From Chlorobiaceae bacterium (GTDB lineage: Bacteria > Bacteroidota > Chlorobiia > Chlorobiales > Chlorobiaceae), in assembly GCA_013336025.1 (NCBI GenBank), contig JAAXUM010000019.1, positions 1 to 11,587 on the forward strand: a DNA stretch of 11,587 nucleotides, read 5' to 3'. Shown one piece after another: positions 1-8,810 of this stretch. Position numbers and translations under genes: made by a program. Under the pieces are notes generated by a model. The model made no database searches and was not told the DNA's origin. It was given only the letters and a program-made list of their open reading frames with translations. The first letter of the stretch is position 1, and each line of letters starts with the position of its first letter.

Positions 1-385
1 CCCCGGCAAGCTTCTGAATGGGCGTTATACGCATGGGGCGCTGAGTTTTATTGACATAGTACCAGAGATTGTCGTTCAGCATCAGGAGCATATTTCCTCG
101 CTGTTTGACCGGTTCGATATAACTGACCAGAGTTTTTGTGCGGTTTTTTATAAACACCCTGAAAACATCCTTTTTCTGTTCACTCTGGTTTTCATACGAA
201 AGCGTTGCAGCCATGGTGAAATCCGACCATGGAGCTCTGACATCATCAGCTTGTTTGAGGATTTCTTCGGCATGGCTGTTTTGTTCAGCATCACTTGAAG
301 CTGTTTCTGCAAAACCATTCTGTTCGATTATAACCGTCAGAAGCAGAAGGAGGGAAATCACAATCCGGAAAAAAGTTTTATACAT
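1..385 (-). CDS. LolA-like outer-membrane lipoprotein-sorting protein (C-terminus cut by window edge)
   Basis: The visible part is 128 codons from ATG 385-383, running off the left edge. The N-terminus is a clear Sec signal peptide: Lys3 and Arg7, a hydrophobic core at about residues 8-20, and likely cleavage after Gly-Phe-Ala at 24-26. The mature part has alternating beta strands, and the visible end (GNMLLMLNDNLWYYVNKTQR, then PMRITPIQKLAG) resembles the LolA-like family annotated 'outer membrane lipoprotein-sorting protein', an open beta-barrel that carries acyl chains across the periplasm. The start codon overlaps the last 8 nt of the FtsX-type permease gene (ATGTATAA), so translation is probably coupled and no strong Shine-Dalgarno is seen. 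Next to an ABC ATPase and a Lol-type permease, it is probably the periplasmic acceptor of whatever the cluster exports. Ligand and final acceptor are unknown. Family assignment is from pattern recognition only. Confidence 0.75.
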   Translation of the reverse strand, partial: MYKTFFRIVISLLLLLTVIIEQNGFAETASSDAEQNSHAEEILKQADDVRAPWSDFTMAATLSYENQSEQKKDVFRVFIKNRTKTLVSYIEPVKQRGNMLLMLNDNLWYYVNKTQRPMRITPIQKLAG

Positions 386-1667
386 GAGTTAATGAATTGA
401 CGATTGAAATTTTTCTGATTTTCAGGAGGGTCAGCAATCCTGAAAATGTCGTAGAAAACATAACCAGCAGTGCTATCCATGGCAGAAACTCTGTGGCGGG
501 ATATATCTTGAGAAGGTATGTTGAAGACATTCCCGGCGGGGGTGGCATTCTGAATCCGGAATTATTGATAATGAACGAGAAAATGATTTTAAGCGCCATG
601 CCCCCAATAAGACTCATGAGTCCTATAAAAAAACCTTCGAAAAGAAACATAAGAGAGATCCAGGGGTTTGCTATTCCTATGGCTTTCAACGTTCCGATCT
701 CCCTTACTCTTTCCATTGTTGACATAAGCATGGTGTTTGTGCAGCTCAGAAAAACAATGACAACAACGATAATTCCCGTAAAACTGAAAATGATGCGGTA
801 TGCATCTCTGATTGAGTGGTAGTATTCAGCAAGTTGGTCCCAGGGGATCGCAGTAAACAGAGCCGGTTTCCCCGAACCGTTGATTGCGGCTGATACAAGC
901 GGCGTGATGGATTCAGTGTTATCTGTTTTGTCGAGAACAACAACAATTTTAGAAACCCTGTCCGTCTGCATAAGACTTTGGGCTGTTGGGATATTGGTGA
1001 CGAGGTAGTAACGATCTATCGATTTCATGGTGCTTTTGACAACTCCGGCAACTGTTACATCGACAACATTGACTGCGCCGTCTACGGTTGTACCCATCAG
1101 CATGAGGCTGGATCCGGTTTCAGCATTCAGCGATTTTGCCATTCCTTCGCCGAGAAGTACTCCGTTCTGTCCGGTCAGTTCAAGTTTTTTGTACGATGAG
1201 TCGTCCATTTTTGTTTTGGAAGACATCTTGTCCAGTGCATTCCAGTAATGCATAAGCTCGCTCTCTTTTTCAGGATCAATACCCATGCCAAGAAATGAAA
1301 TCGACTTCTCTCCATTTGAAATGAGCCCGTTAAATTCTATACGGGGTATGGTTGCTTTTATGCTTTTATTGGAAGCAATCAGCGCCTGAATTTTTTCATT
1401 GTCTGCTATTCCGTACTCGAGCGGATATCGTTCTTCTTTTTGCAGTGCTTCACGTTTTACGATCTGTATATGACCGGTCCCGCCGCTCGACGTGAAGCCC
1501 CTGCAGATGGTCATCTCCTTGAGGCCGTAAAAGGTGAAATCCATATATCCGGCAACAATTGCCAGTGCAGCAAAACCTGCCGAAGAGACAAGAATTGTAA
1601 TCAACGTTCTTCTGCTGTTACGAAAAAGGTTTCTGAGAGCTATACTGGCAAGTTTGATGCTATTCAT
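378..1667 (-). CDS. ABC transporter permease, FtsX/LolC-LolE/MacB type
   Basis: This is a 429-residue inner-membrane permease with the four-helix FtsX layout: TM1 at about 21-43, a large periplasmic domain at about 45-288, and TM2 about 290-313, TM3 about 337-366, TM4 about 394-416. The cytoplasmic stretch after TM2 (MERVREIGTLKAIG, 318-331) is the typical coupling segment that contacts the ATPase. The C-terminal RKISIVNSLTHV resembles the end of Lol permeases. Such permeases do not pump across the membrane; they use ATP to extract or push substrates (lipoproteins, lipids) at the periplasmic face. The partner is presumably the LolD-type ATPase at 3122-3832, with the LolA-like protein as acceptor. 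Only one permease is visible, so it may act as a homodimer. An in-frame TAA directly before ATG 1667 fixes this as the most upstream start; ribosome binding is weak (AAGAA-like). Confidence 0.88.
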   Translation of the reverse strand: MNSIKLASIALRNLFRNSRRTLITILVSSAGFAALAIVAGYMDFTFYGLKEMTICRGFTSSGGTGHIQIVKREALQKEERYPLEYGIADNEKIQALIASNKSIKATIPRIEFNGLISNGEKSISFLGMGIDPEKESELMHYWNALDKMSSKTKMDDSSYKKLELTGQNGVLLGEGMAKSLNAETGSSLMLMGTTVDGAVNVVDVTVAGVVKSTMKSIDRYYLVTNIPTAQSLMQTDRVSKIVVVLDKTDNTESITPLVSAAINGSGKPALFTAIPWDQLAEYYHSIRDAYRIIFSFTGIIVVVIVFLSCTNTMLMSTMERVREIGTLKAIGIANPWISLMFLFEGFFIGLMSLIGGMALKIIFSFIINNSGFRMPPPPGMSSTYLLKIYPATEFLPWIALLVMFSTTFSGLLTLLKIRKISIVNSLTHV

Positions 1668-1771
1668 TTAATTTCTTGTTGATTCGACTTATTTTACTGT
1701 TCATGAGATCGGCGATGTAATATAAAGTGACGCTGTACATTATGCGTATAAATTATTTCTTACATCCACTC

Positions 1772-3025
1772 TTATACTTTTTCAAGCAACATCGCTGAAA
1801 TAGTTATTCCCTGTGCGTAACCGATGCAGATGATTTTCTGGCCTGATGATATAGTTGAATCATCAATAAGCTGTTTGCACATCAAGGGAATTGCGCCCGA
1901 TGAGAGGTAACCGTTTTCATATAATGTGTTTCTGCTGAAGGCCATCTGTTCTTCGGAGAGGTCAAGCTCTTTAGCAATCTGTTTCAGAACAAGAGAACTC
2001 GACGCCTGGAAAACAAAAAGCAACTGGTCTTTTACTTCCCTGAACTCCATGCCGGCATCGCTGAAAAAAGATTTGACGAAATTATTGATATTCTTTCTGA
2101 TAAGCCTGAAATACTTCATCGGATCGATTCTGAACTCAAAAGCAGGATCCGAAACCTTCCAGACTGCTGAGTTCGTCGAATTCGGGATGGTCATGTTTTT
2201 AAAGGCAACGATTTTAAGAGAGGGCAGTCCTTTTTTTCGGGCATCATCGTACGTCATGATGGAATATCGTAAAAAACTGTCACTGAAGGTACTCATCAGT
2301 CCGACGTTGATCGGATGATCTTCGGAAAGATTGATGTGGATGCTGAACATTTCGGAATGTACAAGATCAATCCTTTTTTTAAGTTTTTCATATCCGCCCG
2401 AAAGGGAAGATCTTATCAGAGCATTTGCTGTACGTATTGCAGGTATGGGTGCGTTGCATGCTTTATGATAAAAGTTGGTGATATCGACATCATGCCACTT
2501 CTTTTCGGAGATAATGATGTCGACCGCGTTTGGGTCGAAATATCCTGTTGAGGTTACATGTATAATATGATCAGGCTGCTCATGTGCATCGTTATACAGC
2601 TTTCTGAGATGTTTTTCAGTATGAAGCCGGTATAACTCCATTCGATCATTTAAACCGGCACCGGCAGGATGGGTATGGTGTTTAGCCAGATTTTCATACA
2701 TGGGAAAAACGGATTCATACTCGATAAATCGTCCGTTTTCAACAATCGGACACTCTTCGTCGGCAGCATCATAATTTTCAGGCCAGATTGACAAATATCG
2801 CTGCTTTATGGTTTTTTCTGAAACCGCAAACTGGCTGAATTTAGTACGGACTTTTTTATGGATTTTCTCGACATCTTTTTCCGATGTTTTGCCTGACTTT
2901 ACGGCAAGCGCTTTTACCATTCCCTTTGCCAGCAGTTTGCAGGTCTTTTCCTGTGGGACAAGATCTCTTAAGCGTACTGAGTGAAAATCAGTTAAAACAG
3001 TAGCGGTGCTTTCAATCTCTTTCAT
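1772..3025 (-). CDS. Type III PKS/KAS III-like protein with a degenerate catalytic triad
   Basis: This 417-residue protein has a thiolase-fold layout closest to chalcone synthase-like/KAS III enzymes and is longer than usual for either (roughly 320-390). HVTSTGYFDPNAVD (155-168) matches the 'T-x-x-G' segment before the nucleophile. HKACNAPIPAIRTAN (187-201) places the nucleophile at Cys190. HSEMFSIHIN (223-232) matches the SEI/SEL strand. FVFQASSSLVL (337-347) sits where W-x-x-HPGG is expected, putting Gln340 at the catalytic His. NGYLSSGAI (371-379) sits where GNMSSA is expected, putting Tyr373 at the catalytic Asn. The 33-residue His-to-Asn spacing of chalcone synthase is preserved (340 to 373), which supports the alignment. 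Normal decarboxylative condensation therefore looks unlikely; acyl transfer, acyl holding or a structural role are possible. It lies between the ATPase and permease genes. Start ATG 3025; ribosome binding is weak. Confidence 0.78.
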   Translation of the reverse strand: MKEIESTATVLTDFHSVRLRDLVPQEKTCKLLAKGMVKALAVKSGKTSEKDVEKIHKKVRTKFSQFAVSEKTIKQRYLSIWPENYDAADEECPIVENGRFIEYESVFPMYENLAKHHTHPAGAGLNDRMELYRLHTEKHLRKLYNDAHEQPDHIIHVTSTGYFDPNAVDIIISEKKWHDVDITNFYHKACNAPIPAIRTANALIRSSLSGGYEKLKKRIDLVHSEMFSIHINLSEDHPINVGLMSTFSDSFLRYSIMTYDDARKKGLPSLKIVAFKNMTIPNSTNSAVWKVSDPAFEFRIDPMKYFRLIRKNINNFVKSFFSDAGMEFREVKDQLLFVFQASSSLVLKQIAKELDLSEEQMAFSRNTLYENGYLSSGAIPLMCKQLIDDSTISSGQKIICIGYAQGITISAMLLEKV

Positions 3026-3121
3026 GAAAATCTTTTTTTTCAGTTGCCATTAAAAAAATGTTACAAACCGGTTCACAGGCCATAAAAAAAGTGCTAAAAT
3101 AAAAAGGATGCCGGAAACAGT

Positions 3122-3832
3122 TCAGGCTATATGGTTGTGAAGAGCTATTTCGTCAACCATTATCTTTCCGTCACTGATATGAACAACGCTTTTTATTCTG
3201 TCGAGCACTACAGAATCATGAGAAGAGACAACGATGGTAATATGTTCCTTCTTGTTGAGGCTCATCAATAGATCAAGAATCCCTGCACCTGTTTTACTGT
3301 CAAGATTAGCTGTCGGTTCATCTGCCAGAATCAGAGCGGGTTTGCTTACCAGAGCCCTTGCAATGGCAACCCGTTGCTGCTGTCCGCCAGACATCTCTCT
3401 TGGATAGTGATGTTTTCTCTCAAGAAGCCCTACCTCGTCAAGCACTTCATCGACTCTTTGGCGGATGCTCTTTTTATCCATGCCTTTAAAAAGAAGAGGG
3501 AGTTCGACATTCTCATAAGCCGTAAGTACCGGAATTAAATTGAATGACTGAAAGACAAACCCGATCTTGTTAAGCCGCAGATTCGCCAGTTGTTCGAGGC
3601 TCATTGATGAGGTATCGATGCCGTCGATGATGACGTTCCCCTCATCCTGCTTGTCAATGCAGCCGAGAAGATGAAGCAGGGTTGATTTGCCGCTTCCTGA
3701 CAGTCCGACAAGGACGACGATATCTCCTCGAAAAAAAGAAAGATTGACATGATTGAGCGCGGTAACACGCCCTTCTCCGCTGCCGTAATATTTCGAGACA
3801 TTTATCAGTTGTGCAATAATCCTGTCATTCAT
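3122..3832 (-). CDS. lolD: ABC transporter ATP-binding protein, LolD/MacB family
   Basis: This is a 236-residue ABC ATPase with every nucleotide-binding motif intact: Walker [10 protein letters not shown] (43-51), Q-loop Gln95 in [10 protein letters not shown], signature [10 protein letters not shown] (147-156), Walker B ALILADEP (166-173) followed by the D-loop, and switch His205 in VVSSHD. The [20 protein letters not shown] segment is typical of the LolD/MacB/FtsE group, which pairs with FtsX-type permeases. It should power the permease at 378-1667 from the cytoplasmic side. It lies 105 nt downstream of the enoyl reductase gene and 96 nt before the KAS III-like gene, so the transporter is split by an enzyme gene. 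Start ATG 3832 gives a normal family N-terminus ([20 protein letters not shown]). The symbol reflects family membership; it may serve the cluster product and not general lipoprotein sorting. Confidence 0.92.
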
Positions 3833-3937
3833 GATTCAAACGGTTCTTTTCATGCATTTCCACATGTTCATTGAGTAATGATAACCGGAACAGGAGTTTG
3901 ATATGCAAGTCGTCGGACGTAACAAATCAAGGTCAGC

Positions 3938-4690
3938 TTAGGCCAATAATCCTTTTCCGCCATCAATTGTGATGGTTTGTCCGACGATCTGGGCTCCTGC
4001 ATCCGTTGTAAGAAAATTTACCACTTCAGCAACATCTTGAGGTGTTGTCATTCTGCCTGAAGGCGTATACTCGAGGGTGATGTTTAAAAGACGTTCAAGT
4101 TCCGGTAAAGCCTTTGCCGCATCGGTCATGACCAGGCCGGGGCAGACAAGATTAACCGCGATTCCTTCAGGAGCGAACTCACGGCTGTAGTGACGGAACA
4201 AGGCCTCCATGGCGCCTTTTGTAGAACCTACTGCGGCATAATCAGGAATAACCCGGGTTCCTCCAGGCGAGGTGATTCCGATTATACGGCCGCCTCTTCC
4301 CATTTTTCCTATAAGCTCTCTTGTCAGCCGGTGTACAGCAAAGAAATTGATTTCAAAAGTCCATTTCAGTTGTTTATCGGAAAGCTCCATGGCTTTCCGG
4401 TGTACTCCGCTGGCAGCAGAGTGTACAAGAATATCCACATGTTCGCAGGAATCATGAAGTTGCTGTACAACCTGGATGAAGCTTTCTTCATGAGAAAGAT
4501 CGCCTCTGAACGTCGTGATATCGAGTCCCCGGACAGCAGCCTCATGTTCAAGAGATTCGGCACTTTTACGGCTTCTTGCATAAAGTGCGAGCACTCTGGC
4601 TCCGCTTTCGGCAAGATTCAGCGATATGGCTCTCCCTATTCCTCTTGTTCCCCCTGTAACGACAGCAATTTTATTTGTCAGATGTTTCAT
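3938..4690 (-). CDS. fabL: FabL-type enoyl-[ACP] reductase (SDR family)
   Basis: This is a 250-residue short-chain dehydrogenase. The cofactor loop TGGTRGIG is at 12-19, with Arg16 and the downstream YARSRK (37-42) suggesting NADPH. Where a FabG-type ketoreductase has Tyr-x3-Lys, this protein has Tyr151-x6-Lys158 (YAAVGSTK). That spacing is the enoyl reductase motif of FabI/FabL, and as I recall the residue numbers match Bacillus subtilis FabL. SAASGVHRKAMEL (91-103) and the C-terminal IDGGKGLLA also resemble FabL more than FabG. Likely reaction: NAD(P)H-dependent reduction of trans-2-enoyl-ACP, completing the cycle with the neighbouring KR and DH. Its ATG overlaps the fabG stop (ATGA), with a GGGAG Shine-Dalgarno inside fabG. 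Automatic annotation would probably call it a 3-oxoacyl-ACP reductase, which the Tyr/Lys spacing argues against. Confidence 0.85.
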   Translation of the reverse strand: MKHLTNKIAVVTGGTRGIGRAISLNLAESGARVLALYARSRKSAESLEHEAAVRGLDITTFRGDLSHEESFIQVVQQLHDSCEHVDILVHSAASGVHRKAMELSDKQLKWTFEINFFAVHRLTRELIGKMGRGGRIIGITSPGGTRVIPDYAAVGSTKGAMEALFRHYSREFAPEGIAVNLVCPGLVMTDAAKALPELERLLNITLEYTPSGRMTTPQDVAEVVNFLTTDAGAQIVGQTITIDGGKGLLA

Positions 4691-5451
4691 ATTCCGGTGT
4701 CTCCCAATGATCTTCCGCCGTCAACAGGAATGACGGATCCGGTTATGTAGCGAGCCTCATCAGAACACAAAAAGGCAATGAGAGAACCTACATCTTCCGG
4801 TTCTCCAATAAATCCCGCCGGTATGTGTCTGTTGATTTCACGTCCCGAAGCTTTTTCAAGATAGTTCACAACTCCGGCAGTCATGGGTGTTCTGATCAGG
4901 CCGGGAGCAATGGCGTTAACTGTAATGCCGCGGTGGGCAACTTCGAGTGCAAGTGTTTTGGTAAATCCTATTATTCCTGCCTTGGCGGCGGCATAGTTCG
5001 CCTGTCCCCGTTTGGCATAGATTCCGCTTATCGAACTGAGATTGATAATTCTGCCATACCGTTTTCCATACATTGATTTCAATGCAAGCTGGCACATGGC
5101 CATGGTTACGATAAGGTGTTCATGGATAAGCTTGTCATGAATGGAAAAATCGGTCTGTAAAAAGAACCCATCCTTAATTCGTCCGGCTGAATTAACCAGA
5201 ATTTCAGGTTGTTTTTCGAAATCCGATACGACCTCATCATACAGTTCTTTTGCATCACGATATTCCGCAAGTGGGCGGCAATATATTCTGACTTCATGAC
5301 CCATATCGCGCAATTCAGCTGCTGATTCCTGCGCCTTTTCGTGATTTGATGCATATGCAAGAGCAAGGTCGTACTTTTCGGCAAGCGCTTTCGCTGCTCC
5401 GAAGCCTATGCCTGAAGTTCCGCCTGTTATAAGTGCAAGATGTTTTTCCAT
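4687..5451 (-). CDS. fabG: 3-oxoacyl-[ACP] reductase, FabG type
   Basis: This is a 254-residue classical SDR with cofactor loop TGGTSGIG (9-16), NSAG (87-90), catalytic Ser140 in INLSSISG, and Tyr153-x3-Lys157 in QANYAAAKAG. The 13-residue Ser-to-Tyr distance equals that of FabG. It should reduce 3-oxoacyl-ACP to 3-hydroxyacyl-ACP with NADPH in the cytoplasm. In the helix where most FabG proteins have the tetrad Asn, I read His112 (HEHLIVTMAMCQ), an unusual change if the alignment holds. A start 10 codons upstream (5481) is possible, but ATG 5451 gives the family N-terminus MEKHLALITGG. It has AAGGAG 8 nt upstream and forms a TGATG junction with the ketosynthase stop. The gene ends in an ATGA overlap with the enoyl reductase gene. 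Confidence 0.92.
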   Translation of the reverse strand: MEKHLALITGGTSGIGFGAAKALAEKYDLALAYASNHEKAQESAAELRDMGHEVRIYCRPLAEYRDAKELYDEVVSDFEKQPEILVNSAGRIKDGFFLQTDFSIHDKLIHEHLIVTMAMCQLALKSMYGKRYGRIINLSSISGIYAKRGQANYAAAKAGIIGFTKTLALEVAHRGITVNAIAPGLIRTPMTAGVVNYLEKASGREINRHIPAGFIGEPEDVGSLIAFLCSDEARYITGSVIPVDGGRSLGDTGI

Positions 5452-6686
5452 CAGTTCCGCTCCTTTTTTAGTACAAGGCATGCGTTCTGACCGCCAAATC
5501 CAAAACTGTTGCTGAGAATATAATCAATCGCAACATCACGACTTCCTTCGGGGACATAATCGAGATCACAGTCAGGATCAGGATCGTGCAGATTGATCGT
5601 GGGAGTTATTTTCTGGCGAAGCAGCATCAGAATACAGGCAATAGCCTCTACAGCTCCAGCAGCGACAGTCGAGTGCCCGATTTGCGATTTCAGCGAGCTG
5701 ACGGGAATTTGATAGGCATTCTCACCGAATACCTTTTTTATAGCCTGGGTTTCAAGGCGGTCATTAAGCACTGTTGATGTGCCGTGCGCATTGATATAAC
5801 CGATCGCTGTTTTTTCGATGCCTGCATCGGTTATGGCATCTTCCATAGCCCTGACAACACATTGATTGTCATCTCTGCCATCCGTCAATCGATAGGCATC
5901 CGAATTAAAAGCGTAGCCACATACCTGAGCAAGTATTTCGGCTTTTCGTTCTTCAGCGGCAGCTCTTGTTTCAAGAAGAAGCACAGCCGCAGCCTCACTT
6001 TTGACAAAACCGGAACGGCTTTTCGAAAACGGTCTGCTGGCGGTATGAGCGGGAACGTCATCGGTTGAGAGTGTATGCAGCAGATGAAAATTCATGAGCT
6101 GGCTTTCCCATGCTCCGGCATCTACAGCACAAACAAGGCACCTTTTTATTCGCCCGGATTTCAGCAGGTGGTATGCAACCCCAATTGCCTGACTTCCTGC
6201 AGCACATGCGGAATTGACACTGATTATGTTCTCGGGAGCAATTGAGCCGTGTCCTCGTTGTTTGAGTTTTTTGGCAATAATTTCAACAACCCATTCGGCA
6301 CGAAGTTCATCCCAGATAAATGAATCCGGGTCGTAATGCATCAGTGAATCCCTTACAATATCAAAATAAATACCTGCCGGAGATGCCTGAACAAGAGCGT
6401 CAATCGGAACTGACTCAGGCAGTCGCTGAAGAATCTGCTGAAGGGCATGGATAAGGTACCGGCCTCCATTTGTATGCAGGCCGAGAGGTAGGCCCAGTTC
6501 CGCAGCAGGCGGGATGTTCGTGTCATCAACAACTCCTCCGAATGCAACAGGAAAGTTATTTCCAACAAGTGACCCTCGCAGGTCGATAATACCCGAATCA
6601 CCTGCAAACATCCGCTTTTCAAACTCAGGTACCGATATCCCGATCGGAGAGGTAATACCAAAGTCGGTTACAACGATATCAAGCAT
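5451..6686 (-). CDS. Beta-ketoacyl-[ACP] synthase, FabF (KAS II) type
   Basis: This is a 411-residue complete ketosynthase with an intact triad: Cys161 in VNSACAAGSQAIG, His301 in INAHGTSTVLNDRLET, and His338 in SLKSQIGHS, with the conserved Lys333 before it. The C-terminal SNSFGFGGQNACLVL is the usual Gly-rich oxyanion/gating segment. It should catalyse decarboxylative Claisen condensation of acyl groups with malonyl-ACP. The canonical G-E-G-A after the RSGF loop is S-E-A-A (230-233), a sign that this is not the housekeeping FabF. It begins 7 nt after the ACP gene and is followed by fabG through TGATG. The CLF-like protein at 7011-7742 is the obvious candidate for a heterodimer partner. Chain length and starter cannot be read from the sequence. 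Confidence 0.93.
   Translation of the reverse strand: MLDIVVTDFGITSPIGISVPEFEKRMFAGDSGIIDLRGSLVGNNFPVAFGGVVDDTNIPPAAELGLPLGLHTNGGRYLIHALQQILQRLPESVPIDALVQASPAGIYFDIVRDSLMHYDPDSFIWDELRAEWVVEIIAKKLKQRGHGSIAPENIISVNSACAAGSQAIGVAYHLLKSGRIKRCLVCAVDAGAWESQLMNFHLLHTLSTDDVPAHTASRPFSKSRSGFVKSEAAAVLLLETRAAAEERKAEILAQVCGYAFNSDAYRLTDGRDDNQCVVRAMEDAITDAGIEKTAIGYINAHGTSTVLNDRLETQAIKKVFGENAYQIPVSSLKSQIGHSTVAAGAVEAIACILMLLRQKITPTINLHDPDPDCDLDYVPEGSRDVAIDYILSNSFGFGGQNACLVLKKERN
5460..5465 (-). promoter_or_regulatory. Shine-Dalgarno AAGGAG deciding the fabG start
   Basis: AAGGAG on the minus strand lies 8 nt before ATG 5451, inside the last codons of the ketosynthase gene. It supports the 254-residue FabG over the 264-residue version starting at 5481. 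Confidence 0.75.
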
Positions 6687-6693
6687 GAGCGTT

Positions 6694-6996
6694 CTATTGT
6701 TTTTCTTCTTCTTCTTTCTTGCGAAGAACCAGCATCATATAATCGATAATGTCCTGAACGGAAATATCAGTGATGTCGTCACCCTTTTTTTCGGTGATGT
6801 ATTGCAGGGCTTCGGTAAAATCAAGTTCAACTCCGGTACGCTGCTCTATTTCATAACTGATATCAAGATAATCGATGCTTTCAGCATCAAGGTCAGCCTT
6901 GAACATGCTTTCTTTCGTGATATCGCCCGCTTCGGTATTTAAAACAGCTCGGATTGCATCCTCAAGCTTTTCGAACAGCTCTTTTTCCGATAACAT
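6694..6996 (-). CDS. Acyl carrier protein, 100 residues, ESID-type motif
   Basis: This is a small acidic helical protein with the phosphopantetheine site at Ser40 in KADLDAESIDYLDISYEIEQ (33-52). The usual D-S-L is replaced by E-S-I followed by Asp. It is longer than a standard ACP of about 78-85 residues: helix III is preceded by an ITEKKGDDITD segment (67-77), and the C-terminus is a charged tail, RKKEEEEKQ (92-100), encoded by a run of GAA codons. It should carry the growing chain as a thioester for the KS, KR, DH and ER encoded around it, after activation by a phosphopantetheinyl transferase; acpS is three genes upstream. A strong Shine-Dalgarno (AAGGGGGG) precedes the ATG, which fits the high expression expected of a carrier protein. 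Confidence 0.92.
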   Translation of the reverse strand: MLSEKELFEKLEDAIRAVLNTEAGDITKESMFKADLDAESIDYLDISYEIEQRTGVELDFTEALQYITEKKGDDITDISVQDIIDYMMLVLRKKEEEEKQ

Positions 6997-6999
6997 TTA

Positions 7000-7007
7000 C
7001 CCCCCTT
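7000..7007 (-). promoter_or_regulatory. Strong Shine-Dalgarno of the ACP gene
   Basis: AAGGGGGG, extended upstream by further A residues, lies directly before TAA-ATG of the ACP gene in the 14-nt gap after the CLF-like gene. It is the most G-rich ribosome-binding stretch noticed in the operon, consistent with extra ACP synthesis. Confidence 0.65.
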
Positions 7008-7010
7008 TTT

Positions 7011-7742
7011 TTATAGTTGCGTTATGATCTGATGACTTATGCCATAATAAGACTCCGTTTCATCGAAATTTATATCCTGCCATTCAGAGTGTTTTTCATC
7101 AGCCGTCAAGAGCAGTGCTGCTGCACCCTCGCATAAAATTCGTTCATTCAGATTCTGCCTTCGTATGCGTTCAAGCACCAGAGGATTTTCAAAACTGAAG
7201 GCACTGCATACCAATGCCGCCGAAACGCGTCCGGCATTAAGATCATCCTCTGCCTGCCTAAGCGCATGAATGCTGCCGTAAGTTGAACTGTTGTATACAT
7301 TTAAAGGCCCCATAATTCCAAGAAATATCCCCATCTGGGCAGGTGCCAGATTCGTGACTTGCATGAGAAACATTTTAGGGTTCCTGACTTTTCTGTACTG
7401 CTCGGCAAAATCTTCCCGTGAGACATCAAGCATTTTCCGGGTTGATTCCAAATCGACCGGTCCATTTTCGATAGCGCAGTATATTCCGACACTGAAGGGA
7501 GAAATATCAAGAAATGGCTGCATTGCCGCCGTTCCTTCAAGACATGCAAGTGAGAGCAGAACGCCTGATCTGCTCATTGATCGGTAAACTTTTCGGTCGG
7601 GAAGCGGGGCCTTGCGTTCTTCTATCGGAAGCGCTTTTGAACGGGGAATGTTGATTTGCTCTCCGTAATATTCGCAAGTATATGGCTGTTCATTGATTTC
7701 AGGGCCGGGAACAAGGGCTTTGCTCCAGAGAATTTTGCTCAT
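7011..7742 (-). CDS. Ketosynthase-like protein lacking the catalytic Cys (chain-length-factor-like)
   Basis: This 243-residue protein corresponds only to the N-terminal half of a beta-ketoacyl synthase. The nucleophile-elbow region MGPLNVYNSSTYGSIHALRQ (144-163) aligns with 'GP..tistACaSglhAl', and the Cys position falls on Thr154. RILCEGAAALLLTADE (201-216) matches the 'GEGAaalvLe' strand. No His-containing C-terminal half follows, and the reading frame ends normally, so this looks like a genuine short form and not decay. It resembles the short 'Ketoacyl-synt_2' proteins that act as chain-length factors in aryl-polyene-type clusters (family assignment inferred). Expected role: inactive partner of the KS at 5451-6686, setting chain length. 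A start at 7784 is open, but ATG 7742 is preferred because GGGAGG precedes it and it overlaps the dehydratase stop as ATGA. Confidence 0.82.
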   Translation of the reverse strand: MSKILWSKALVPGPEINEQPYTCEYYGEQINIPRSKALPIEERKAPLPDRKVYRSMSRSGVLLSLACLEGTAAMQPFLDISPFSVGIYCAIENGPVDLESTRKMLDVSREDFAEQYRKVRNPKMFLMQVTNLAPAQMGIFLGIMGPLNVYNSSTYGSIHALRQAEDDLNAGRVSAALVCSAFSFENPLVLERIRRQNLNERILCEGAAALLLTADEKHSEWQDINFDETESYYGISHQIITQL

Positions 7743-8185
7743 ATTCCTCCCGTGATTGTTCTGCAAGTAGCAGAATCGTCGCATAGGGCATCAGTCATTT
7801 TTTCTGCAGGAATTGCAATATGACCATACATCACCTCGGCATAAGCAACATCTTTTCCATCAACTTCGATTCTTCCTTTGGCAATTGAGTAGGATTGACG
7901 AATGGTAACTTCGGTATGAATAAGCGCTTTGTCTCCAGGTTCGATGGCTTTCCGGAATTTTGCGCTTTTTACAGAGGTAAGGACCGGAAGAAAACCAGGC
8001 TTGGCTGCCATAATGCATTTGCCGCCTGTTTGAGCAATCATTTCAATCTGAAGAACACCGGGAACGAGAGGATAACCAGGAAAGTGATCCATAAAAAAAA
8101 GTTCGGAACGGGAAAAACATTTTACTCCTGTGGCTTTAATGCCAGGTTCCATTTCAATAATCTTGTCAACCATTAACCAACGCAT
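7739..8185 (-). CDS. 3-hydroxyacyl-[ACP] dehydratase, FabZ-like hotdog fold
   Basis: This 148-residue hotdog-fold protein begins MRWLMVDKIIEMEPG, matching the FabZ N-terminal strand (RFLLVDRVLE-EPG). The active site is intact: His34 in DHFPGYPLVPG (33-43) and Glu48 in VLQIEMIAQTGG (44-55). It should dehydrate 3-hydroxyacyl-ACP to the trans-2-enoyl product. It is the first gene of the biosynthetic operon, 215 nt downstream of acpS, and its stop overlaps the CLF-like start (ATGA). No clear Shine-Dalgarno precedes ATG 8185. The frame stays open upstream (IYPYT precedes the Met, echoing the 'RYPF' of longer FabZ proteins) but contains no ATG, so the exact start is somewhat uncertain; Met5 (8173) is another option. 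A housekeeping FabZ is presumably encoded elsewhere. Confidence 0.9.
   Translation of the reverse strand: MRWLMVDKIIEMEPGIKATGVKCFSRSELFFMDHFPGYPLVPGVLQIEMIAQTGGKCIMAAKPGFLPVLTSVKSAKFRKAIEPGDKALIHTEVTIRQSYSIAKGRIEVDGKDVAYAEVMYGHIAIPAEKMTDALCDDSATCRTITGGI
7746..7751 (-). promoter_or_regulatory. Shine-Dalgarno GGGAGG deciding the CLF-like start
   Basis: GGGAGG lies 3 nt before ATG 7742 and within the final codons of the dehydratase gene. With the ATGA overlap it favours the 243-residue product over the 257-residue frame starting at 7784. Confidence 0.65.
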
Positions 8186-8400: not shown

Positions 8401-8769
8401 TTACGAAACCAGTACAACAGCCGTTGCATATTGTTTGTCATGAGAGAGTGAGATACTGATCGAAGCTTCAGACAGGGGAGATTGTTTGTCGATCACCCGG
8501 ACAAATGGTTTGCCTTCGGGGTTATTGAGAATCTCTACGCTATGCCAGTTGAAGTGCTTGCTGATTCCGCATCCCAATGCTTTTGAAAGAGCTTCTTTCG
8601 CAGCAAATCTTGCCGCAACGCTTTGCGTCATATCGGCTTTTTTACGACAGAGGGCGATTTCGTTTTCGGTCAGTATTTTCATGAGAAAGCGATCGCCATA
8701 GCGGTTACAGGAGGTTCTGATGCGATCAACATTAATGATGTCCATTCCTATTTCCTGAACGATTGCCAT
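8401..8769 (-). CDS. acpS: Holo-[acyl-carrier-protein] synthase (AcpS)
   Basis: This 122-residue phosphopantetheinyl transferase moves the 4'-phosphopantetheine arm of coenzyme A to a Ser of ACP. Family motifs are in order: IGMDIINVDRI (7-17) with metal-binding Asp10, RFAAKEALSKALG (54-66) with Glu59 and Lys63, and the C-terminal ISLSHDKQYATAVVLV (106-121). The frame is open to a TTG at 8808, adding 13 residues, but ATG 8769 gives the usual AcpS length and N-terminus. No good Shine-Dalgarno is visible for either start. It is on the same strand as the fatty-acid-like operon and directly upstream of it, so its product may activate the cluster ACP, although it could equally be the cell's general AcpS. 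Confidence 0.94.
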   Translation of the reverse strand: MAIVQEIGMDIINVDRIRTSCNRYGDRFLMKILTENEIALCRKKADMTQSVAARFAAKEALSKALGCGISKHFNWHSVEILNNPEGKPFVRVIDKQSPLSEASISISLSHDKQYATAVVLVS

Positions 8770-8810
8770 TGATATTGTATGGAATGATGAAACCTTGTTA
8801 CCAAGCAAGA

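What the first reader, a model, noticed from the sequence alone, without database searches (positions are those of the whole stretch)
1..8185. Dedicated fatty-acid/polyketide synthase operon joined to a Lol-like export machine
Seen: ten same-strand genes encode a full reductive type II cycle (KS, CLF-like KS, ACP, KR, DH, ER) followed by a LolD-type ATPase, a degenerate KAS III-like protein, an FtsX/LolE-type permease and a LolA-like secreted protein. Known: KS/CLF pairs with ACP, KR, DH and LolA-like proteins occur in aryl-polyene-type clusters. Inference: a specialised acyl product is made and moved directly towards the outer membrane. The combination of a fully reducing cycle with an ABC/LolA route differs from the usual polyene layout and may be an undescribed outer-membrane lipid or lipid-anchor system.
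Basis: partly seen in the sequence, partly recalled or inferred. Interest (0 to 1): 0.75.

Follow-up and report, generated by a model that had tools for sequence, protein, structure and literature searches.

The report
Chlorobium island for exported specialised lipid
Some uncultured lake green sulfur bacteria carry a compact gene set that looks built to make a special long-chain, possibly phenolic, lipid and move it to the outer membrane, using a chain-capping enzyme whose active site has been rewired.

Summary
Ten minus-strand genes (8185 to 1) encode a reducing type II cycle (KS, half-size CLF-like protein, ACP, KR, DH, FabL-like ER) and a LolD/FtsX/LolA-like route; an AcpS upstream belongs to the set. 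The operon appears to continue on another contig with a 451-aa secreted, possible beta-barrel protein.
The host is Chlorobium. Eleven of 65 genomes of the genus carry the set, with conserved gene order. Outside the genus, no genome in a 394-genome phylum sample had a strong CLF-like match. So it is an accessory island, not the genus's housekeeping lipoprotein sorting.
The 'degenerate KAS III' is a full-length relative of ArsB/ArsC, the type III polyketide synthases that make alkylresorcinol and alkylpyrone lipids in Azotobacter. The window copy keeps the catalytic Cys but has Gln for His and Tyr for Asn; its clade is under purifying selection. A paralogue with intact triad shares the locus in two relatives and stands alone in a third.
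Best reading: an Ars-like lipid system fed by a type II instead of a type I synthase, with a Lol-like exporter. The product and the export cargo are inferred, not shown.

The parts
8401..8808 (-). AcpS, phosphopantetheinyl transferase of the island
   Evidence: PF01648 match; stands at the head of the cluster in relatives; the only PF01648 match in carriers G030, G048 and G056
7739..8185 (-). FabZ-like 3-hydroxyacyl-ACP dehydratase (DH)
   Evidence: PF07977; NCBIfam FabZ 92 of 113 bits; alignment A5
7011..7784 (-). Half-size CLF-like protein (ketosynthase N-terminal-domain relative without the catalytic Cys)
   Evidence: 9 of 9 members match PF00109 weakly; Cys column T/S/R/V/G
6694..6996 (-). 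Dedicated acyl carrier protein, Ser40 as likely phosphopantetheine site
   Evidence: PF00550; alignment A6; site by recalled motif
5451..6686 (-). FabF-like ketosynthase with Cys161, His301, His338
   Evidence: catalytic roles recalled
4687..5481 (-). FabG-like ketoreductase (KR)
3938..4690 (-). FabL-like enoyl reductase (ER), Y-x6-K motif
   Evidence: NCBIfam FabL 234 of 328 bits; best PDB match FabL 3oic; alignment A7
3122..3832 (-). LolD-like ABC ATPase
   Evidence: LolD 226 of 308 bits
1772..3025 (-). ArsB/ArsC-family type III PKS with Cys190-Gln340-Tyr373 in place of Cys-His-Asn
   Evidence: E 3.4e-64 to ArsC over residues 8-417; motifs and coordinates
378..1667 (-). FtsX/LolE-like permease
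   Evidence: PF02687 and PF12704; lolCE 88 of 362 bits
2..385 (-). LolA-like secreted protein, cut by the contig edge; the rest, and a 451-aa secreted protein, lie on contig C96
   Evidence: PF17131

Best explanation
This is an accessory lipid island of Chlorobium. Supported by sequence: AcpS, ACP, KS with a half-size CLF-like partner, KR, DH and a FabL-like ER make up a reducing type II cycle; the next enzyme belongs to the ArsB/ArsC type III PKS family; an ABC ATPase and permease, a LolA-like carrier and a possible outer-membrane barrel follow. Inferred: the KS/CLF pair sets a long chain length; the chain is handed from the dedicated ACP to Cys190 of the ArsB/C-like enzyme, as Azotobacter ArsA hands its chain to ArsB and ArsC; the enzyme caps or releases the chain. 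Intact-triad copies probably make an alkylresorcinol; the C-Q-Y and C-Q-D copies perform a slowed, shortened or altered reaction, or plain acyl transfer. The LolD-FtsX pump then lifts the lipid from the inner membrane onto the LolA-like carrier for delivery to the outer membrane.
For: Conserved gene order. Co-occurrence in the genus: ArsB/C-like strong in 11 genomes, FtsX in the same 11 of 65, CLF-like strong in 10 of 65, all among the 11, the eleventh (G041) being cut by its contig end. No strong CLF-like match outside the genus in a 394-genome phylum sample. Full-length ArsC match. Acyl transfer from the ArsA ACP to the Cys of ArsB and ArsC is reported in a review (PMC6274091, passages). Beijerinckia and Methylosinus plasmids place ArsB/C-like genes beside an ABC permease, ATPase and RND-type adaptor. 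The C-Q-Y clade is under purifying selection (dN/dS 0.12-0.16 in four pairs). A second, canonical FabF covers housekeeping synthesis.
Against: The window copy lacks the canonical His and Asn, so in this genome no standard type III PKS reaction is assured. There is no chemistry. KS, ACP, KR, DH, ER, LolD and FtsX proteins all score below the NCBIfam cut-offs of their best equivalog models, so activities and cargo are inferred. The Trp that favours resorcinol in ArsB is also present in the ordinary type III PKSs put in the same alignment and is replaced by Leu or Val in 4 of 11 Chlorobium copies, so it is weak evidence. FtsX has no blastp match to the Beijerinckia or Methylosinus permeases, so that parallel is one of layout. 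No PF03548 LolA was found in this genome, so a shared role in lipoprotein sorting here is not excluded.
Confidence: 0.55

Rival explanations
1. An aryl-polyene-like or other type II polyketide system: the KS/CLF pair makes a polyene or partly reduced chain for an outer-membrane lipid, and the ArsB/C-like protein is an accessory.
For: KS with a half-size CLF-like partner, ACP, KR, DH and a LolA-like carrier, as in ape clusters (PMC8358021 and PMC8253772, passages).
Against: A conserved FabL-like reductase argues for saturation. No aryl-loading synthetase, methyltransferase or RND pump was seen among the operon genes. No ApeC hit by sequence.
Confidence: 0.15
2. A dedicated fatty acid for lipid A, phospholipid or a lipoprotein anchor: the type II cycle makes an unusual acyl chain, the C-Q-Y protein is a plain acyltransferase or thioesterase, and the LolD/FtsX/LolA genes sort the modified lipoprotein or lipid.
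For: Cys190 is kept while His and Asn are changed; the exporter is Lol-like; no other LolA was found in this genome.
Against: Intact-triad copies exist at the same locus in three relatives. No acyltransferase or lipoprotein gene was seen in the conserved block.
Confidence: 0.2
3. The synthase genes and the Lol-like genes are neighbours without a shared function, the latter doing housekeeping lipoprotein sorting.
For: No PF03548 LolA in this draft genome.
Against: 54 of 65 genomes of the genus lack the FtsX gene altogether at E<=1e-30, and its presence matches that of the ArsB/C-like gene in all 11 carriers. This genome has higher-scoring LolC/E-like permeases elsewhere.
Confidence: 0.05

Closest known systems
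Azotobacter vinelandii ars system (ArsB/ArsC type III PKSs with the type I fatty acid synthase ArsA)
   Same: Type III PKS of the same full-length family; dedicated fatty acid synthase genes in the same cluster; membrane lipid as proposed product
   Different: Here the synthase is type II (separate KS, CLF-like, ACP, KR, DH, ER); the window has one ArsB/C-like copy, with a C-Q-Y triad; a Lol-like exporter is in the operon
Beijerinckia indica pBIND02 and Methylosinus sp. C49 pMSC49a ars-like clusters
   Same: ArsB/C-like genes next to a type I PKS/FAS gene and ABC permease, ATPase and adaptor genes
   Different: Type I synthase; intact triads; RND-type adaptor instead of a LolA-like carrier; permeases without blastp match to this one
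Aryl polyene clusters (ApeO/ApeC; ApeL, ApeM, ApeN)
   Same: KS with a half-size CLF-like partner, ACP, KR, DH and a LolA-like carrier (PMC8358021 and PMC8253772, passages)
   Different: FabL-like ER and type III PKS genes here; an ABC pump instead of an RND pump; no aryl-loading synthetase or methyltransferase seen
Planctomycetota and cyanobacterial (hierridin) type III PKS operons
   Same: Alkylresorcinol synthases in small operons (PMC10896814, passages)
   Different: [quoted passage not shown] that paper's text has no occurrence of 'fatty acid synthase'
LolCDE-LolA lipoprotein sorting
   Same: ATPase, FtsX-type permease and LolA-like periplasmic protein
   Different: Single permease gene; LolD and lolCE scores below cut-off; absent from 54 of 65 genomes of the genus

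Membership tests
ArsB/ArsC type III PKS family | Full-length sequence relationship to ArsC | tested here: met
   Residues 8-417 to ArsC 10-410, E 3.4e-64; 3vs8 and 3vs9 are the only PDB matches at 1e-10
ArsB/ArsC type III PKS family | Cys-His-Asn catalytic triad | tested here: not met
   C190, Q340, Y373 in the window; intact in one copy each of G003, G008 and G041
Ars phenolic-lipid system | Type I fatty acid synthase in the cluster | tested here: not met
   Discrete type II proteins instead
Ars phenolic-lipid system | Alkylresorcinol or alkylpyrone product | not testable with these tools
   No chemistry
Aryl polyene cluster | KS plus half-size one-domain CLF | tested here: inconclusive
   Length and N-terminal-domain matches fit; no ApeC hit by sequence; structure prediction could not be run
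Aryl polyene cluster | Aryl-loading synthetase and RND exporter | tested here: not met
   Not among the operon genes seen
LolCDE/LolA lipoprotein sorting | Scores above the curated LolD and LolC/E cut-offs | tested here: not met
   LolD 226 of 308 bits; lolCE 88 of 362 bits
LolCDE/LolA lipoprotein sorting | Transports lipoproteins | not testable with these tools
   No cargo data
FabL enoyl-ACP reductase | Score above curated cut-off; Y-x6-K motif | tested here: inconclusive
   234 of 328 bits; motif conserved in the 8 SDR2 rows; best PDB match FabL

The most novel reading that the evidence does not exclude
The C-Q-Y and C-Q-D clade is a new enzyme activity evolved inside the type III PKS fold: it takes a long chain straight from a dedicated type II ACP, keeps the nucleophile, but no longer extends by the ordinary malonyl route, and so builds an undescribed outer-membrane lipid in green sulfur bacteria that is exported by its own Lol-like pump.
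Probability: 0.35. Interest if true: 0.75.

Novelty: new variant of a known kind. Interest (0 to 1): 0.6.

Why it matters
If right, it extends Ars-type lipid biosynthesis to green sulfur bacteria and shows the same type III PKS family coupled to a type II synthase in place of a type I one. It offers a natural series of triads (C-H-N, C-Q-D, C-Q-Y) in one operon family, which makes the roles of His and Asn testable in enzymes that selection has kept. It also proposes a lipid cargo for a LolD/FtsX/LolA-like route.

Tried and rejected
Naming the genus: a scan with the single window protein found no relative; an FtsX alignment gave 10 named loci, all MAGs. Considered and rejected: the window's type III PKS as a decaying gene (dN/dS low; but a true remnant of such a gene exists in L050); the Lol genes as the genus's housekeeping set; a second LolA-like gene in this genome, which proved to be the other part of the same gene at another contig's edge. 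One dN/dS row for the intact copy was in the wrong frame and was redone (0.079). CLF-like protein against plasmid records: no match. FtsX against plasmid records: 47 records, best identities about 30%, generic permeases. Direct profile comparison of CLF-like with KS was weak (probability 2.5%, E 0.018). Promoter and terminator scans found no more than shuffles would give for promoters (12 against a mean of 17.1) and about chance for terminators (14 against 11.4), so they were not used. Literature: 9 searches ran. No paper in the library holds both 'Chlorobium' and 'alkylresorcinol'. One search matched 601 papers, of which 10 were listed; the one listed with 'Chlorobi' names it only as a phylum. 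One search gave 3 papers, seen as a listing only. Absence from print is therefore not shown beyond these searches. Papers seen as passages: PMC6274091, PMC3098273, PMC8358021, PMC8253772, PMC12559476, PMC10896814, PMC6562949; none was read whole.
Full report
What is there. The window is one whole contig (C105) of a 2.18-Mb draft genome, 92% complete. The order of transcription is AcpS, DH, CLF-like, ACP, KS, KR, FabL-like ER, LolD-like, ArsB/C-like, FtsX-like, LolA-like, with purB and a CCA-transferase-like gene further upstream (these last two names are recalled, from no call). Within the synthase block, and between FtsX and LolA, genes overlap or lie within 14 bases; gaps of 96-105 bases separate the ER, LolD, ArsB/C-like and FtsX genes, and 215 bases lie between AcpS and DH. 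The LolA-like gene runs off the contig. Its other part, and then a 451-aa protein, lie at the end of contig C96. That protein is 53-63% identical to the one after LolA in nine relatives. Three of the 10 aligned members give a weak beta-barrel match (MtrB/PioB, best 9e-4); the window genome's own copy gives none. Secretion is judged by eye from the N-terminus.

Whose it is. The ten loci found by the FtsX alignment are named Chlorobium sp. or Chlorobiaceae, all MAGs.

Conserved and accessory. Ten longer regions were fetched from ten same-genus genomes. One of them (L030) is a short contig with only the ArsB/C-like gene of this set; in the other nine the gene order agrees wherever the contig reaches, apart from which ArsB/C-like copies are present, where they sit, and extra genes before FtsX in L023 and L024. 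In G056 the ArsB/C-like gene sits upstream of AcpS; in G049 it is on another contig. Of 65 genomes of the genus, FtsX matches at E<=1e-30 occur in 11. The CLF-like profile matches 14 of 65 at E<=1e-3, of which 10 are strong (E<=4e-138); the other four are weak hits of 57-60 profile positions in frames of 418-455 aa, which look like ordinary ketosynthases. The ArsB/C-like protein matched 21 of 101 relatives at E<=1e-3, of which 11 are strong (E<=2.1e-80), all in the genus; one further genome of the genus, G012, has a weak hit (4e-5). The strong carriers are the same 11 genomes; the one without a CLF match (G041) has its contig end inside the cluster. In a phylum sample of 394, genus members included, the CLF-like profile matched 19, of which 10 strongly, all in the genus; five genomes of the same family gave only weak hits. 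The ArsB/C profile matched 115 of 394 at E<=1e-15, but the best outside the genus was 7e-42, against 4e-149 or better for the best match of each carrier. AcpS: carriers G030, G048 and G056 show only the cluster's PF01648 match; seven other carriers show two or three, and G041 none.

Not housekeeping. The genome has one other ketosynthase, a FabF above its cut-off (628 against 494 bits), and a tandem pair of LolC/E-like permeases that score higher on lolCE than the window permease, though also below the cut-off (window permease). It has eight FtsX-domain places in all. No PF03548 LolA was found in this draft genome, which keeps some room for a role in lipoprotein sorting here.

The central correction. 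The 'KAS III-like' protein is a type III PKS of the ArsB/ArsC family: the window protein alone finds only the two ArsC entries in PDB at 1e-10, over its full length, and the family profile gives 1e-114. [quoted passage not shown] The window copy has C190, Q340 and Y373 in place of Cys-His-Asn.

Three flavours. Motifs were read for 13 Chlorobium copies in the 11 carriers: three intact (A: G003, G008, G041), eight C-Q-Y (B: G000, G003, G020, G024, G030, G035, G041, G048) and two C-Q-D (C: G049, G056). So A and B stand together in two genomes, A alone in one, B alone in six. At the column of the Trp/Gly switch, one search shows Trp in both A and five of seven B rows, Leu in two B rows and Val in both C rows; but Trp is also there in the Beijerinckia, Methylosinus, G264 and two ordinary type III PKS rows, so it says little. 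In a 17-row tree, B and C together form one fully supported group (100/100), apart from A and from the proteobacterial copies; how A, these and the proteobacterial group relate is not resolved. One His-to-Gln change is the simplest history (inference). B is under purifying selection: dN/dS 0.12, 0.14, 0.12 and 0.16 in four pairs, with dS above 1.4 in two of them and only 0.025 in one; C 0.24 in its one pair; A 0.079 in its one pair.

What the change may mean. In alfalfa chalcone synthase the other His303 changes listed abolished malonyl-CoA decarboxylation, His303Gln being the stated exception; Asn336Asp severely impaired it (PMC6274091, passages). So B and C should not be called dead: the swap seen at His is the tolerated one, and Cys is invariant. 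Asn to Tyr is not among the changes listed there. A fungal cluster of type III PKSs with a changed triad (H303D, N336S) has been noted (PMC12559476, passages).

Other parts. KS keeps Cys161, His301 and His338 (catalytic roles recalled). The CLF-like protein is about 250 aa, matches the N-terminal ketosynthase domain weakly in 9 of 9 members and has no Cys at the aligned position (that alignment is weak). Aryl-polyene ApeC is likewise half-size with one thiolase domain (PMC8358021, passages), but no ApeC hit was found by sequence. The SDR has FabL as best match in NCBIfam and PDB and Y-x6-K.

Mechanism. Supported by sequence: the set of cycle enzymes, the ArsB/C family relationship, the exporter family, conservation and co-occurrence. 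Inferred: long chain length, saturation, hand-over from ACP to Cys190, the nature of the product, and delivery to the outer membrane. ArsB/C-like genes also lie beside ABC exporter genes in Beijerinckia and Methylosinus, which supports export of the product, although those permeases show no blastp match to this one. The Beijerinckia cluster has been listed as a type P secondary-lipid synthase like that of Azotobacter (PMC3098273, passages).

Limits. Structure prediction never ran. Searches outside the phylum were limited to plasmid records, PDB and two scans of genome contigs. The ten named carriers are MAGs, and no chemistry is known.

Noticed in passing
L072 (G000:C96) 2431-4236: The operon appears to continue here: the other part of the LolA-like gene and a 451-aa secreted protein.
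   Followed up: yes
L023:7648-8655 and L024:5717-6952: Extra genes of 335 and 411 aa without Pfam match lie between the ArsB/C-like and FtsX genes.
   Followed up: partly
L050:7408-7626: Remnant of an ArsB/C-like gene between LolD and FtsX, while the same genome (G049) keeps a C-Q-D copy on another contig.
   Followed up: partly
L029:7153-7785 and L030:4238-4870: A GNAT acetyltransferase gene follows the C-Q-D ArsB/C-like gene in G056 (Pfam match), and a gene with a like N-terminus follows the copy in G049.
   Followed up: partly
L063:13199-16200: Beijerinckia indica pBIND02 carries two ArsB/C-like copies; the second has a changed neighbourhood of the catalytic Cys (CCHG for GCYG).
   Followed up: no
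L025, L027, L031 flanks: In these three the island lies between a sulfide:quinone-reductase-like gene and a bciA-like gene (names recalled), but next to other genes elsewhere, so its site varies.
   Followed up: no
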